Source: Nephrocerus scutellatus
Lineage: Eukaryota > Arthropoda > Insecta > Diptera > Pipunculidae
Reading direction: 5' to 3'
DNA: 64,000 nucleotides
Assembly: GCA_947095585.1 (NCBI GenBank)
Contig: OX352765.1
Span: 25,574,254 to 25,638,253, forward strand
Notes under the pieces: model-generated
Told to the model about the DNA's origin: nothing
Seen by the model: the letters and a program-made list of their open reading frames with translations, nothing else
Databases searched by the model: none
Shown here: one piece after another, positions 14,512-62,014 of the stretch
Layout of the letters: every line of letters begins with the position of its first letter
How positions within the stretch are numbered: the first letter of the stretch is position 1
Position numbers and translations under genes: made by a program

Positions 14512-14705
14512 CTGGAAGAAAAATGCAAAAATGCGCAAATATTTTCATTTATATGACAGTAACTTTTTTGCTATATTATTTGTAATGGAACCCAGTAATT
14601 ATTTTGCTTAAAAATATTCCATTTAACGAATACGTTGACAAATTTGCAAACAAACTTGCCTTTAGGCAAATCACAACGTTGATTTTTGTGTTTTTTTTTT
14701 TTTTT

Positions 14706-15000
14706 TGATACTAGCTGACCAGCTAGTTGCCTGGCTGCCCGAACCCACACTGTCCCCACCACACTACCCACCCCCACCCAACTGACCACCAAGACCCTTC
14801 AACATCCACCATGAGATAAAAACCCCCACCCACCCAAACATATTTCAGCACTATTAATAAACTACACTGTCTTCGACTTAATCTCATACAAACAATACCT
14901 AGCTACCCACCAAGTCAACCACCTCAAAACCATTACATCACTAACACCATACAAACATCCACGCCAATCGTCCCCAACACAACCCAAAGTTTCAGCTATA
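14706..15000. repeat. C-rich interspersed repeat, unclassified
   Basis: Starts ACTAGCTGACCAGC and runs into a CACC/CCAC-rich, G-poor strand. Similar composition and words occur at 795-1010 and 25290-25520. It could be the 5' part of an unrecognised non-autonomous element. No coding signal. Confidence 0.4.
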
Positions 15001-15179
15001 TCAGATGAACTGTCATTGAGTTAAGCGTGAACAGACATACAGACAAAGTTTCATTTTTAAATATTAAGATCACTTATCCAGTTGTCGGATTAAAACCTTC
15101 GCTAACTATAATACTATAATACAACGATTGGCTCCAGATGAAAGAAATGTAACCAGATAGTATTGGTATGTAGCAGGAA

Positions 15180-15985
15180 AGGTGGCTAAATCGGAGGCAA
15201 TAAATTTTCCTATATCGTCCTTCAAGGATTTTAAAGCACCAGCTCCAGATTGTATATATCCAATAATCCTGCAACATGGTTGTAATTGATTTATAGAGGA
15301 TATGTACATCTATGTTTATGCAATGTTAGAGTAGCATTTATTCCGAAACCGGGCAAAAGCGACTACTCACTAGCAAAAAGCTTCAGGCCAATCAGTCTTT
15401 CATCACTTGTTCTGAAAGGTCCTGAACGCTTGGTTTAGATGTATATTAGATGGAATTTACTCAGAAGAAATCCCTTAATCAACGTGGGAGATCCTGTGAG
15501 ATCTTCATGATCTTGTTTTCTATATTAAAATATGCCTATAGGGGTTATTAGTGATATTAAGTGAGCTGTTGACAACGCTACCTTTAACTCGATGTGCAAC
15601 TCTGCTGAAAGGCCTGGGGTGAAACCAACCTTAACTAGATGGATTCACTACATGATTTCTCTCCGGCTTCAGGGGACAGGGGAGAATATGGACGATAAAA
15701 TTACACTCGAAGAGGCTAGAGGATGGTAACAGGGTATAGTCCTTTCGCCGCTCTGTGGTGCTTTGTTGTCGATTCTTTACTAGAAAAAGTTGGTCAATTA
15801 GACATACATACATACAAGCCTATGTGGATGATGTATGTCTTACCTCAAGGCCGCCTGTATAAATCTACAGACTACTCTGAATAGAATGAATAACTGGTGT
15901 AGCAGAAATGGACTATCGGTAAACCCAAGCAAAACAACTCCAGTTTTATTTACTCGAACGTTCGATTTGCTAATAATATAATAGT
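15180..15985 (+). mobile_element. Non-LTR retrotransposon family A, reverse transcriptase remnant
   Basis: Frames interrupted by stops carry FKAPAPDCIYPIILQ (near 15219-15276), VAFIPKPGKSDYSLAKSFRP followed by ISLSS (near 15331-15403) and NNWCSRNGLSVNPSKTTPV (near 15890-15950). These are blocks before, at the start of, and after the polymerase centre of the same family as 56.5-57.2 kb. Many lesions; inactive. Confidence 0.75.
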
Positions 15986-16129
15986 GGGGTATGTTTAAAT
16001 CCTGCTAGCGGCGGGATTTTAACACGCCACATAGGTGAACGAACTCAGTGCGTTGTACGTATGAACGGTGTTCATGAAATCAATTTACTTTTTAAATTCT
16101 CTATGGTTACTTCGCGCCTGAATGTGTTG

Positions 16130-16370
16130 GTGTGTTTGTGATAAAATTTTATTCCACTTCCTAATACCAGATTTCATTCAAACTTTTCTCACATGTGTAT
16201 CTTCGATGGTCCGAGGACACTTTTTATAAAAATTTGGAAGTGATTGGGGCCGAGTGGTTCCCATATAATTTTTTTCAAAACTAACCTGATTTTATTCAAG
16301 CTATGCTCACATGTGTATCTTCAACTAGAGAATTTACATGAAAAACTTTCTTTTTTATGGGTTGGTTTTC
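16130..16370. repeat. Interspersed repeat D
   Basis: Contains two CACATGTGTATCTTC segments, GGGCCGAGTGG, CCATATAATTTTTTTCAAAA and the closing AGAGAATTTACATGAAAA, as in 8.1-8.3 and 54.6-55.1 kb. Confidence 0.6.
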
Positions 16371-16479
16371 TTAAAAGGTTTAAAAGTTATTATAAATACT
16401 CTGTACTTTTTTTTAACAAAATAACGAAATAAACGACCACATATTTACCGTCGCCAAAAATGCTGCGAAATGTTTATGT

Positions 16480-16700
16480 TTTCTAGCCCGGTGCAAGAAA
16501 TATTTCATTCCCTCTGATCTTGCTACAAGGCTTTTATTAGGCCTAAGCTTGAGTAAATTGCCACATCACTATGATCCACAGGCATTCAAAACACAAGCTA
16601 ATAGACATCTCCTCTTTTCTCCTCTTTTTCCTTAACGTCCACGCTGTGCCAAGCATATAGTCGAGCATTATAAGGGTGCAAACCCCTTTTCGCGAACCCA
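16480..16700 (+). mobile_element. Non-LTR retrotransposon family B, 3' scrap
   Basis: Codes for HYDPQAFKTQANRHLL and then KHIVEHYKGANPF in broken frames, matching the tail on the minus strand at 63293-63790 (DLQAFKTQA, ALCRAL) and in general the C-terminal end of the family B protein (DSYNLQAFKLAVNNFL at 51.7 kb). Confidence 0.65.
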
Positions 16701-59128: not shown

Positions 59129-59798
59129 GGGAAAAATGGAAAACTTCCAAATAATTACTTTTTAACTTCTTCTTCTTAAAAAGGAAGATAAAACAAATAA
59201 TTGTGCAAGAATGCAATCTTTTTTATCCTACCTTGTAATCGATTACCCAAAACATTATTAATATTATTATTATTCAATGAATCAATGAATTCTGAGAAAA
59301 TAAATTGAAACCGGCTACAAACGTGAGGAATGTTATATATTGTAAATTACATTCCTTCGATGTTTATTTTATTTTTTATTTAAATAAAGGGTTTAGCCCA
59401 CCTTATTGCCGTGGCGCAACTCATTCAGCGACTAGTCCCTAGGCAATAAGTTTACGTATAAAAAAATAGGTTGTAGATAACTAAACAACAAAATTTCTCA
59501 TAAGAAGTAGAGCCATTGCGATCTCTTGTGACGTACACACACCATACGCTGATAAGAGTACATTTAAGTACGCATACATGTGTTACTGCTTTTACTTGAT
59601 AAACTAATTTTTTTATATAGGAATTCACTGATCGTAAAAAGTACACGCACACTGAGAAAACGTTCATTTAAATGTGGTGGCGTATACCTAAATTTCATTA
59701 ACTCCTCGCATGCAAGAGTGCCGTTTAGCTGTAGCGAAATTATTTTTGTCGCCTGTTTCTTCCGAATAAGAAACATAACGACGTGTAGTAAGTACCGT
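59129..59798. repeat. Flank duplicate, left copy
   Basis: Direct repeat of 61351-61840. Shared words include ACTTTTTAACTT, CCTTGTAATCGATTA, AACTAAACAACAAAATTTCT, GTAGAGCCATTGCGATCTCT, ACACACCATACGCTGATAAG and TTTAAATGTGGTGGCGTAT. It differs by substitutions and by an extra stretch near 59270-59470. No coding frame is conserved between the copies. Confidence 0.85.
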
Positions 59799-60082
59799 GC
59801 CTTAGTTTTTCAATGGGGAAAACTACAATTACACATTCACGCACTCCTCTTGCTCCTTCACACCGCATAGCATTTTCCCAAAGTCTACGCATTTAGACGA
59901 TGGTAGGTAGGCAGCGATGCCCAGTCAATGCAATAGGCCTTAAAGTGTGTAAGAAAACAAAATTTGAAAAATAAAGTTTTTTTTGTTCTTGTTCTTTGTG
60001 AATGCATATTTTCAAGAGACTGGCGGGCGTATTTGCAGCAGCGACGACTACAGCCTCAGCTCAATCGACGAGTCTGAGCAGC

Positions 60083-60090
60083 TATATAAA
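60083..60090 (+). promoter_or_regulatory. TATA box of cuticular gene 7
   Basis: TATATAAA, 74 bp upstream of the ATG. Confidence 0.75.
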
Positions 60091-60156
60091 GCAAGGGTAA
60101 ATCTAGCAAAGAATCACAGAGTACTTTCATTTGTCAAACATAGCAGACTAGCAGAC

Positions 60157-60978
60157 ATGGTTCAAAAGGCAAGAAATCATAGTCGTCTATTCTTGTTCTT
60201 GGATTTGGATCGAAATAATTTTCAATAAATGTTATTGTTCTTATTTTGTTTCTTTCATATATGGATTATAACCACTCGGCGTCAACATAACACAACATAC
60301 AACAGTTGGTTATCGTTTTTGCTCTTGCAGCAGTGAGTTCGGCAGTTGTTCTTCCGGCACCATATCCAGGACACTATCCTTATGGTCCAGCAGCTGCGCC
60401 TTTGGCTTATGCCCCACTTGCAAAGATAGCCGCTCCAGTCATCGCCAAAGTAGCTGCCGCCCCAGAGCCATACGATCCAAATCCACAGTACAGTTACAGC
60501 TATGATGTTCATGTAAGTCACAACAATTGGTGCTGGATTATTTTTTTAGAATAATGAAATAATACTACGAGTATGTATTACTCGATAATTATGCAATAAA
60601 TTAATTTTTTAGGATGCTTCCACTGGAGACGTTAAGAGCCAACAGGAGACACGTAGCGGAGATGTCGTTCAGGGAGCCTACTCATTGATTGAACCCGATG
60701 GTACAAGACGTTTGGTCGAGTACACCGCCGATCCCGTTCACGGATTCAACGCTGTAGTCCACAGGGAGCCTGTTGCCGCCAAGGTGATTTCCCCAGTCGC
60801 CAAGATTCTAGCACCAGCACCACTGTTGCACGCTGCTCCACTTGTTGCTAAATTGCCAGTTGCTCATTACCCAGGACCAATTGCTTCATACCCAGCGCCA
60901 ATTGCCCCATATCCATATGGAGCTCCATTAGGTGGACCAATTGCTAAACTCGGTTATCCAGGATTACTTCATGGATAG
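60157..60978 (+). CDS. RR-2 cuticular protein 7, tandem copy 3 (about 194 aa)
   Basis: Exons: 60157-60168 (MVQK, then GC donor GCAAGA), 60306-60512, 60613-60978. Nearly identical to gene 6 across promoter, both introns and coding sequence. Differences noted: SQQETRSGD in the domain (as in gene 5), one Pro to Ser in the tail (GPIASYPAP), and a silent change beside the stop (GGA TAG). The RR-2 core DVVQGAYSLIEPDG and VEYTADPVHGFNAVVHREP is intact. The 3' UTR homology stops near 61325, where the duplicated flank begins. Confidence 0.9.
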
Positions 60979-61350
60979 ATAGATGAGCTGATTAACGACC
61001 AGTAACTTTGTAAATATCGACAACAACACCACAGCGGAATTGAATTCAACCCAAAAAAAGGTGCAACGAAAGGAAGTAAGACAATCGTATGGTATGGTTT
61101 AAATACATATAAATAATTAAATAAAAAGAATATATACCATACACGCATACGCTGCTAACCTTTTTTTCTGTGTCATATGTATAAGTATCGTAATGAAATT
61201 GATGTATAAATGTATTTGTTATTATTATTCATGTATTGTAATTAAGGCTGTTTGACCGCGATAAATAAATAAATCAAATGTGTTAAAATGTGCAATTAAA
61301 AGCTAAATGGTGTTGATTATTTACATAATATAGTCTTAGGAGAAAACATG

Positions 61351-61840
61351 TAGGTAAAAATTGAAAACTTCCACATAATAACTTTTTAACTTATTCTTCT
61401 CATGAAAGAACATTTAAAAAAATTATTGTGCAAAAATGCAGTATTTTTTTACCTTACCTTGTAATCGATTATCCGAAACATTATTTTGTATTGAAGATAA
61501 CTAAACAACAAAATTTCTCATAAGAAGTAGAGCCATTGCGATCTCTTGTAACGTACACACACCATACGCTGATAAGAGTACATTTAAGTACGCATACATG
61601 TGTTACTGCTTTTACTTGATCAACTAATTTTTTTATATAGGAATTCACTGATCGTAAAAAAGTAATTAAAAACACATACGAACACTCAGAAAACTTTCAT
61701 TTAAATGTGGTGGCGTATGCCAAAATTTCATTAACACCTCGCGTGCAAGAGTGCACCTTAACGGTAGTGACATTTTTTTCGCCTGTTTCTTCCGAATAAG
61801 CAACAAAACATAACGACGTGCAGTAAGTACCGTCGCATCG
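61351..61840. repeat. Flank duplicate, right copy
   Basis: Direct repeat of 59129-59798; the similarity ends at AGTAAGTACCGT (about 61834), the same point where the left copy passes into the cuticular unit at 59798. Confidence 0.85.
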
Positions 61841-62014
61841 GTACGGCGCGGCATTACCTCAAAATCACATTTATAATTAATAAACCAACAACAGATAAAT
61901 TTAGTTTTGTCGTAGATATTTTAATTTAAAAGGTAATCAAATTAATCGCTTACTTAGCGCATCATCTTTAAATCTCATTAATGTTTTATCTACAGTAGTA
62001 AAAGTCGTACTCAC

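What the first reader, a model, noticed from the sequence alone, without database searches (positions are those of the whole stretch)
14512..62014. Seven cuticular protein genes nested inside one 47.5-kb intron of an NBEAL gene
Two exons at 62.0-62.5 kb and twelve at 11.4-14.5 kb, all minus strand, join with matching phase (GG|C) and in NBEAL family order (GPRGPW, then W-x-L-x-x-x-EN-x-x-RMR). Everything between, including seven intact RR-2 genes in both orientations and a triplication, would lie in a single intron. Long transcription through the intron could interfere with, or help open, a stage-specific cuticle cluster, and the host gene must be transcribed through three near-identical repeats. 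I know of no description of a cuticle gene cluster nested in a BEACH gene.
Basis: partly seen in the sequence, partly recalled or inferred. Interest (0 to 1): 0.88.

Follow-up and report, generated by a model that had tools for sequence, protein, structure and literature searches.

The report
Ancient cuticle cluster inside NBEAL intron
In this fly (likely a hoverfly), seven genes for proteins of the insect's outer shell sit inside one predicted intron of an unrelated cell-trafficking gene, an arrangement already noted in print for two fruit flies and likely inherited from an ancestor shared with planthoppers.

Summary
Fourteen NBEAL exons in the window join in frame without a stop. A Pfam domain (DUF4800) runs across the 62015|14511 junction with no position missing. 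A hoverfly NBEAL protein aligns collinearly over 92 kb around the window, and no second NBEAL locus was found. The seven cuticle genes therefore lie in one 47.5-kb intron; no RNA was available to prove the splice.

The claim of no prior description is wrong: PMC11645545 states that Cpr64Aa-Ad and CG15005 are nested in CG43367, the Drosophila NBEAL gene.

What I did not find in print is its likely age. Database models from a mosquito, a sandfly and a planthopper run from such cuticle genes straight into the same NBEAL exon. The mosquito model has three of them in the window's order. Of 24 short NBEAL models listed, 11 of 11 with insect names start at that exon and 0 of 13 others do.

Most likely this is an ancient nested cluster with its own promoters, kept because leaving the intron would break the host. 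Regulatory coupling is untested.

The parts
62365..62514 (-). NBEAL exon, two exons before the nested cluster's intron is passed (P0001 residues 1760-1809)
   Evidence: AG/GT borders, open frame; tblastn 94% identity
62015..62172 (-). NBEAL exon directly before the big intron; ends GPRGPWYTG, phase 2
14512..62014 (-). predicted 47,503-bp host intron, GT-AG, holding all seven cuticle genes
   Evidence: DUF4800 and P0001 run on across it without a gap; no RNA evidence
14368..14511 (-). NBEAL exon directly after the big intron; starts EPIEEFW; the exon at which insect models break
11415..14302 (-). eleven further NBEAL exons (PH-BEACH, BEACH, part of the propeller); two last exons lie outside the window at about -1991 to -2622
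17341..18176 (-). cuticle gene cpr17 (host strand, next to the acceptor; NYYAD motif); best genome match of the planthopper fused cuticle domain
   Evidence: PF00379 8.9e-18; TATA 86 nt before ATG
28890..30287 (-). cuticle gene cpr29 (host strand; long Ala-Pro repeat part); best genome match of the second cuticle domain of P0051
   Evidence: PF00379 4.4e-16; TATA 72 nt before ATG
37349..37762 (-). cuticle gene cpr37 (host strand)
   Evidence: PF00379 4e-19; matched by the first cuticle domain of P0051
38626..39078 (+). cuticle gene cpr38, inverted duplicate of cpr37 (89% over 244 nt)
   Evidence: PF00379 8.1e-19
46516..47337 (+). cuticle gene copy A of the triplication (three exons; first intron with a GC donor)
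   Evidence: PF00379 1e-13
53209..54030 (+). cuticle gene copy B of the triplication
   Evidence: PF00379 2.2e-13
60157..60978 (+). cuticle gene copy C of the triplication
   Evidence: PF00379 1e-13

Best explanation
Seven cuticle protein genes lie inside one predicted 47.5-kb intron of the only NBEAL gene found in this fly's genome, a nested cluster that is likely as old as the common ancestor of flies and planthoppers and is predicted to be transcribed from its own promoters while host transcripts would splice over it. Shown here: the host exons, their order and frame; the seven genes; two of the three cuticle domains fused to NBEAL in an Anopheles model having their best matches in this genome among the window's genes, and all three standing in the window's order and on the host strand; and the cuticle domain fused to NBEAL in a planthopper model having the gene next to the acceptor as its best match. 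Inferred: that these database models reflect real nesting; that it was inherited and not repeated; that the cuticle genes use their own TATA promoters; that the host RNA ignores the guests' poly(A) signals because they are intronic; and that the arrangement lasts because genes can duplicate, invert or take up transposons inside the intron but cannot easily leave it without breaking the host.
For: Junction and gene; no second locus. Published nesting in two Drosophila. Same neighbourhood: TipE-domain ORFs on the 5' side and an Ig-domain ORF on the 3' side, as for CG43367 between CG18675 (tipE cluster) and ImpL2. Fused models: of 120 NBEAL proteins listed of 1781 found, three carry PF00379 (A. 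minimus, Lutzomyia, Laodelphax), and their NBEAL part starts at DUF4800 position 212, 222 and 214. Order: first P0051 domain -> cpr38 and cpr37 (126 and 125 bits, next 105, 56 matches); second -> cpr29 (126 bits, next 76, 51 matches); third falls in the YY group with cpr17. Planthopper domain -> cpr17 as best of 56. Of 24 listed models under 2400 aa, 11 of 11 with insect names start NBEAL at P0001 residues 1859-1882, against 0 of 13 others. Equal contig length for NBEAL and a YYAD cuticle gene in 10 of 13 species present in both listings (with the motif). Own promoters: consensus TATA 40-160 nt before the ATG in 5 of 7, against 11.8% of 4000 random positions. Poly(A) signals are silenced inside Drosophila introns (PMC3890989, abstract).
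Against: No RNA. Three fused models only, and such models can come from faulty prediction or assembly; P0055 holds one cut-short and one whole YY-type copy in a row. The planthopper match leads by only 5 bits, and the YY group has modest support (82/47). The search's length limits (about 868-2763 aa) favour fragments of the size that starts at this exon. D. grimshawi, Condylostylus and An. darlingi show different contig lengths for the two genes. The hymenopteran, lepidopteran, coleopteran, mayfly, locust and cockroach entries listed lack the YYAD motif, so the cpr17 type may be lost or absent there. cpr37 and cpr38 have no consensus TATA in that span; poly(A) signals (7 of 7 within 400 nt) were not held against a background. 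The genome-wide match of the third P0051 domain did not complete.
Confidence: 0.75

Rival explanations
1. The nesting is real in flies, but cuticle genes entered the same host intron independently in planthoppers, or the planthopper model is an artefact.
For: Only one hemipteran fused model; modest tree support for one YY group (82/47) and a 5-bit lead for cpr17.
Against: Same intron, same strand, and the same cuticle gene type, with the NYYADP motif, next to the acceptor. Models of five insect orders break at this intron.
Confidence: 0.12
2. The arrangement is kept for regulation: host transcription through the intron opens or times the cuticle genes, or cuticle enhancers drive the host.
For: Long conservation; in C. 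elegans a nested gene induces a short form of its host (PMC12274878, abstract).
Against: Orientation is mixed and copy number differs: seven genes here, four in the 64A array of seven Drosophila species (PMC2793513, passages). The neighbouring TipE cluster is as stable, yet its expression does not correlate with its host's (PMC3240667, passages). Nothing was measured for this cluster.
Confidence: 0.1
3. The two exon blocks are two genes, or an assembly join, and there is no single intron.
For: No RNA here, and several insect models start at the exon after the intron.
Against: DUF4800 is split between the blocks with no position missing; unbroken NBEAL proteins of many flies cross the site; one contig, one collinear gene; no other locus for either half; published nesting in Drosophila.
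Confidence: 0.03

Closest known systems
Cpr64Aa-Ad and CG15005 nested in CG43367, Drosophila melanogaster and D. simulans (PMC11645545)
   Same: Orthologous host, cuticle gene cluster inside it, same flanking genes as far as tested.
   Different: Here seven cuticle genes of four sequence types in a 47.5-kb intron with retroelement frames. The one-to-one matching of types to Cpr64Aa-Ad is by order and recalled sizes, not by sequence; a CG15005 counterpart is only a candidate, in the next host intron.
[quoted passage not shown]
   Same: Clustered gene family in one intron of an unrelated, conserved host, stable across insect orders; it lies beside this locus in Drosophila, and TipE-domain ORFs lie beside it here.
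   Different: Other genes and host; its last exons overlap the host's, and its expression has been analysed. The passages seen do not mention cuticle genes (0 occurrences of 'cuticle' and 'cpr' in the main text).
GMC oxidoreductase cluster in a flotillin-2 intron of insects (as described in PMC3240667)
   Same: Insect gene family nested as a cluster in one large intron (passage).
   Different: Other family and host.
Pupal cuticle protein gene in a Gart intron, Drosophila (Henikoff and colleagues 1986; recalled, shown by no call)
   Same: A cuticle gene inside an intron of an unrelated host.
   Different: Single gene, opposite strand, other host.

Membership tests
NBEAL (neurobeachin-like) host gene | BEACH domain with PH-BEACH in front | tested here: met
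   PF02138 1.7e-126 and PF14844 1.4e-19 in that order
NBEAL (neurobeachin-like) host gene | DUF4800 continuous across the claimed junction | tested here: met
   111-210 and 217-253 apart, 111-253 joined
NBEAL (neurobeachin-like) host gene | Full-length collinearity with a named NBEAL1 protein | tested here: met
   P0001 residues 1-2747 in order over 92 kb, except 228-255 without a block
CPR cuticular proteins | Rebers-Riddiford chitin-binding domain (PF00379) | tested here: met
   7 of 7 genes above the gathering score
CPR cuticular proteins | RR-2 subclass | tested here: inconclusive
   Relatives are named RR-2 (for example CPR124 of An. darlingi); no RR-1/RR-2 classifier was run
CPR cuticular proteins | Very short first coding exon before an intron in the signal peptide | tested here: met
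   12-15 nt in all seven models, with a GC donor assumed in A-C; signal peptides were not predicted by a program
Cpr64A cluster in CG43367 | Nested in the NBEAL orthologue, flanked by ImpL2 and the tipE cluster | tested here: met
   Host; TipE ORFs 7e-115 and 1.6e-7. ImpL2 rests on an Ig domain and position alone
Cpr64A cluster in CG43367 | One-to-one orthology of the nested genes with Cpr64Aa, Ab, Ac and Ad | not tested
   No named Cpr64A sequence came up in the listings
Ancient intron-nested gene clusters of insects (kind of TipE in CG18675) | Same genes in the same host intron in several insect orders | tested here: inconclusive
   Diptera well supported, Hemiptera by one fused model, three other orders only by model breaks at the intron
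Ancient intron-nested gene clusters of insects (kind of TipE in CG18675) | Nested genes expressed together and apart from the host | not testable with these tools
   No expression data

The most novel reading that the evidence does not exclude
The cuticle genes have sat in this intron since before the major insect orders split, and their promoters double as moult-timed alternative promoters of the host: transcripts that start in a cuticle gene splice into the exon after the intron and make short BEACH-WD40 NBEAL forms, so the cuticle-NBEAL fusion models and the 11 short insect models are real transcripts that tie membrane trafficking to cuticle deposition.
Probability: 0.08. Interest if true: 0.78.

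Novelty: new member of a known kind. Interest (0 to 1): 0.5.

Why it matters
It would add a third conserved nested gene cluster of insects, beside TipE and the GMC oxidoreductases, and put two such clusters side by side on the chromosome. That makes it testable whether nesting lasts by structural constraint or by shared regulation. It also warns that automated annotation breaks NBEAL, or fuses it to cuticle genes, at this intron in several insect orders. One nested gene (cpr17) has relatives named CPR124 in An. darlingi. A gene of that name was reported overexpressed in a pyrethroid-resistant An. gambiae strain (PMC5593880, passages), with mixed results elsewhere (PMC12122726, passages); that these are the same gene rests on the name.

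Tried and rejected
Missing exon at the junction: rejected. Second NBEAL locus: none found; the other BEACH loci give at most one 46% piece with this protein. Structured RNAs in the window: 0 families at the gathering score. More fused models by a cuticle-plus-exon query: of 6 long proteins with a strong cuticle match among 34 found, three carry BEACH and three are tandem cuticle models. CG15005 counterpart: a frame at window coordinates 74740-77077 in the next host intron is a candidate, but it has no Pfam match and I had no CG15005 sequence. Two statements in my notes were too strong and are mended here: 'no missing residues' (residues 228-255 of P0001 have no block), and '60-72%' flanks of the triplication (ungapped families; gapped identities of A with B and C are 89-96% outside exon 3). 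Never answered: a genome-wide match for the third P0051 cuticle domain. Not answered and not sent again: PF16972 and PF00379 over the own genome. Insect orders of the named species are recalled, not looked up.
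Full report
WHAT IS THERE. The window lies at C5:25574254-25638253 of a held 613-Mb genome in 9 contigs. Fourteen minus-strand exons between 62514 and 11415 have AG/GT borders and join into one open frame of 884 codons. The joined protein carries DUF4800, PH-BEACH, BEACH (1.7e-126) and part of the propeller. Its best relatives are fly NBEAL1 proteins: Episyrphus balteatus 90%, D. melanogaster 86%. 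The closest hit suggests a hoverfly; that is inferred.

THE JUNCTION. Scanned apart, the two sides match DUF4800 positions 111-210 and 217-253. Joined, the match is 111-253. The six residues in between fill the six positions, so nothing is missing. tblastn of the whole Episyrphus protein against the window plus 120 kb of flanks gives one collinear gene from 89610 to -2622. It spans 92.2 kb; 26 of 29 gaps between blocks are under 3 kb and one is 47.5 kb. Residues 228-255 found no block. The genome search with the junction region found no second copy.

THE NESTED GENES. Seven genes with Chitin_bind_4 lie in the intron. cpr17, cpr29 and cpr37 are on the host strand; cpr38 and copies A, B and C are opposite. 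First coding exons are 12-15 nt; in A, B and C the first intron would have a GC donor. cpr37 and cpr38 are an inverted pair, 89% identical over 244 nt. B and C are 96.9% identical over 1562 bp; A is 87-88% identical to both. Five of seven have a consensus TATA box 40-160 nt before the ATG, against 11.8% of 4000 random intron positions. As A, B and C are copies, that is three of five independent cases.

IS IT KNOWN. [quoted passage not shown] simulans. CG43367 is called the orthologue of NBEAL1 and NBEAL2 in PMC4232348 (passage). In this genome a TipE-domain ORF (7e-115) and a second, weaker one (1.6e-7) lie on the 5' side, and an Ig-domain ORF on the 3' side, which fits that neighbourhood. Cornman's study of Drosophila cuticle genes counts four genes in the 64A array in each of seven species and does not use the word 'nested' (PMC2793513, passages). 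I found no paper that states a wider distribution (searches; that library lacks most subscription journals).

HOW OLD. Among the 120 NBEAL proteins listed, of 1781 found, three carry a cuticle domain: P0051 Anopheles minimus, P0055 Lutzomyia longipalpis and P0059 Laodelphax striatellus, a planthopper. Each starts with cuticle sequence and then runs into NBEAL at DUF4800 position 212, 222 and 214, P0001 residues 1866, 1871 and 1866, beside the window's junction at 1862/1863. P0051 holds three cuticle domains. The first has cpr38 and cpr37 as its two best of 56 matches in this genome (126 and 125 bits, next 105). The second has cpr29 as best of 51 (126 bits, next 76). The third falls in the YY group with cpr17; its genome-wide match did not complete. 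This is the order of the window on the host strand. P0059's domain has cpr17 as best of 56, by only 5 bits. In a tree of 63 domains, the 14 with the YYAD motif, planthopper and Timema among them, form one side of a branch with modest support (82/47). A Timema cristinae model, P0132, joins a domain that falls loosely with cpr29 (a four-row set, 95/90*, with a long branch to the cpr29 pair) to a YY domain, in the same order.

ANNOTATION SCARS. Of 119 listed NBEAL proteins compared with P0001, 24 are shorter than 2400 aa. All 11 that bear an insect name (Glossina, two Anopheles, Sergentomyia, Lutzomyia, Anabrus, Gryllus, Lycorma, Laodelphax, Timema, Frankliniella) begin at residues 1859-1882. None of the other 13, two of them unnamed, does. 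Gene finders thus seem to break NBEAL at this intron in five insect orders. The search accepted only about 868-2763 aa, which favours fragments of this size but does not exclude longer ones; and 120 of 1781 were listed.

LINKAGE. Species listed both for NBEAL and for a YYAD cuticle gene show equal contig lengths in 10 of 13 cases, among them Sergentomyia (1.15 Mb) and D. gunungcola (5.57 Mb). D. grimshawi, Condylostylus and An. darlingi differ. Cochliomyia and An. bellator were left out because their listed cuticle genes lack the motif. I read this by eye from the tables. On whole chromosomes, equal contig means little. Of the 120 cuticle proteins listed, 86 have the motif; the hymenopteran, lepidopteran, coleopteran, mayfly, locust and cockroach ones do not.

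HOW IT LIKELY WORKS. The cuticle genes most likely fire from their own promoters. Host transcripts would have to pass the poly(A) signals of three same-strand guests; in Drosophila such signals are silenced inside introns (PMC3890989, abstract). Inside the intron, duplication, inversion and transposon insertion seem to have happened freely, while leaving it would cut the host. The TipE cluster next door in Drosophila shows similar stability without correlation to its host's expression (PMC3240667, passages). All of this paragraph is inference.

VERDICT. No call dates that split; the usual figure of several hundred million years is recalled.

Noticed in passing
window 46169-47819, 52850-54521, 59795-61332: In the triplication, exon 3 of copy A is 99.2% identical to B and C although introns and flanks are 89-96%, while B and C are identical in both introns and exon 2 but 98.9% in exon 3. 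This looks like gene conversion of exon 3 among the copies.
   Followed up: partly
window 46528, 53221, 60169: The first intron of copies A, B and C would start with GC (AAAAG|GCAAG) instead of GT (sequence).
   Followed up: no
window coordinates 74740-77077 (L014, beyond the window): A frame of 164 and 606 residues, rich in Tyr and Pro, lies on the opposite strand in the next host intron, where a CG15005 counterpart would be expected from the Drosophila order. No Pfam match.
   Followed up: partly
P0034 and P0152 (Glossina pallidipes): The accession of the NBEAL C-terminal model (A0A1A9ZKD8) and that of the cpr17-type cuticle gene (A0A1A9ZKE0) are almost consecutive, which hints that they are neighbours.
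   Followed up: no
window 35604-36848, 48479-52619, 56178-58445: Reverse-transcriptase-like frames inside the intron, by my reading of the open-frame list; they share repeats with other parts of the window.
   Followed up: no
window 29266-30040: cpr29 carries a long internal array of Ala-Pro repeats (self-matches at 71-78%), which makes it much longer than the other cuticle genes.
   Followed up: no
own genome C1:96.94-97.08 Mb, C5:19.74-19.88 Mb: Other, larger arrays of cuticle genes in the same genome.
   Followed up: no
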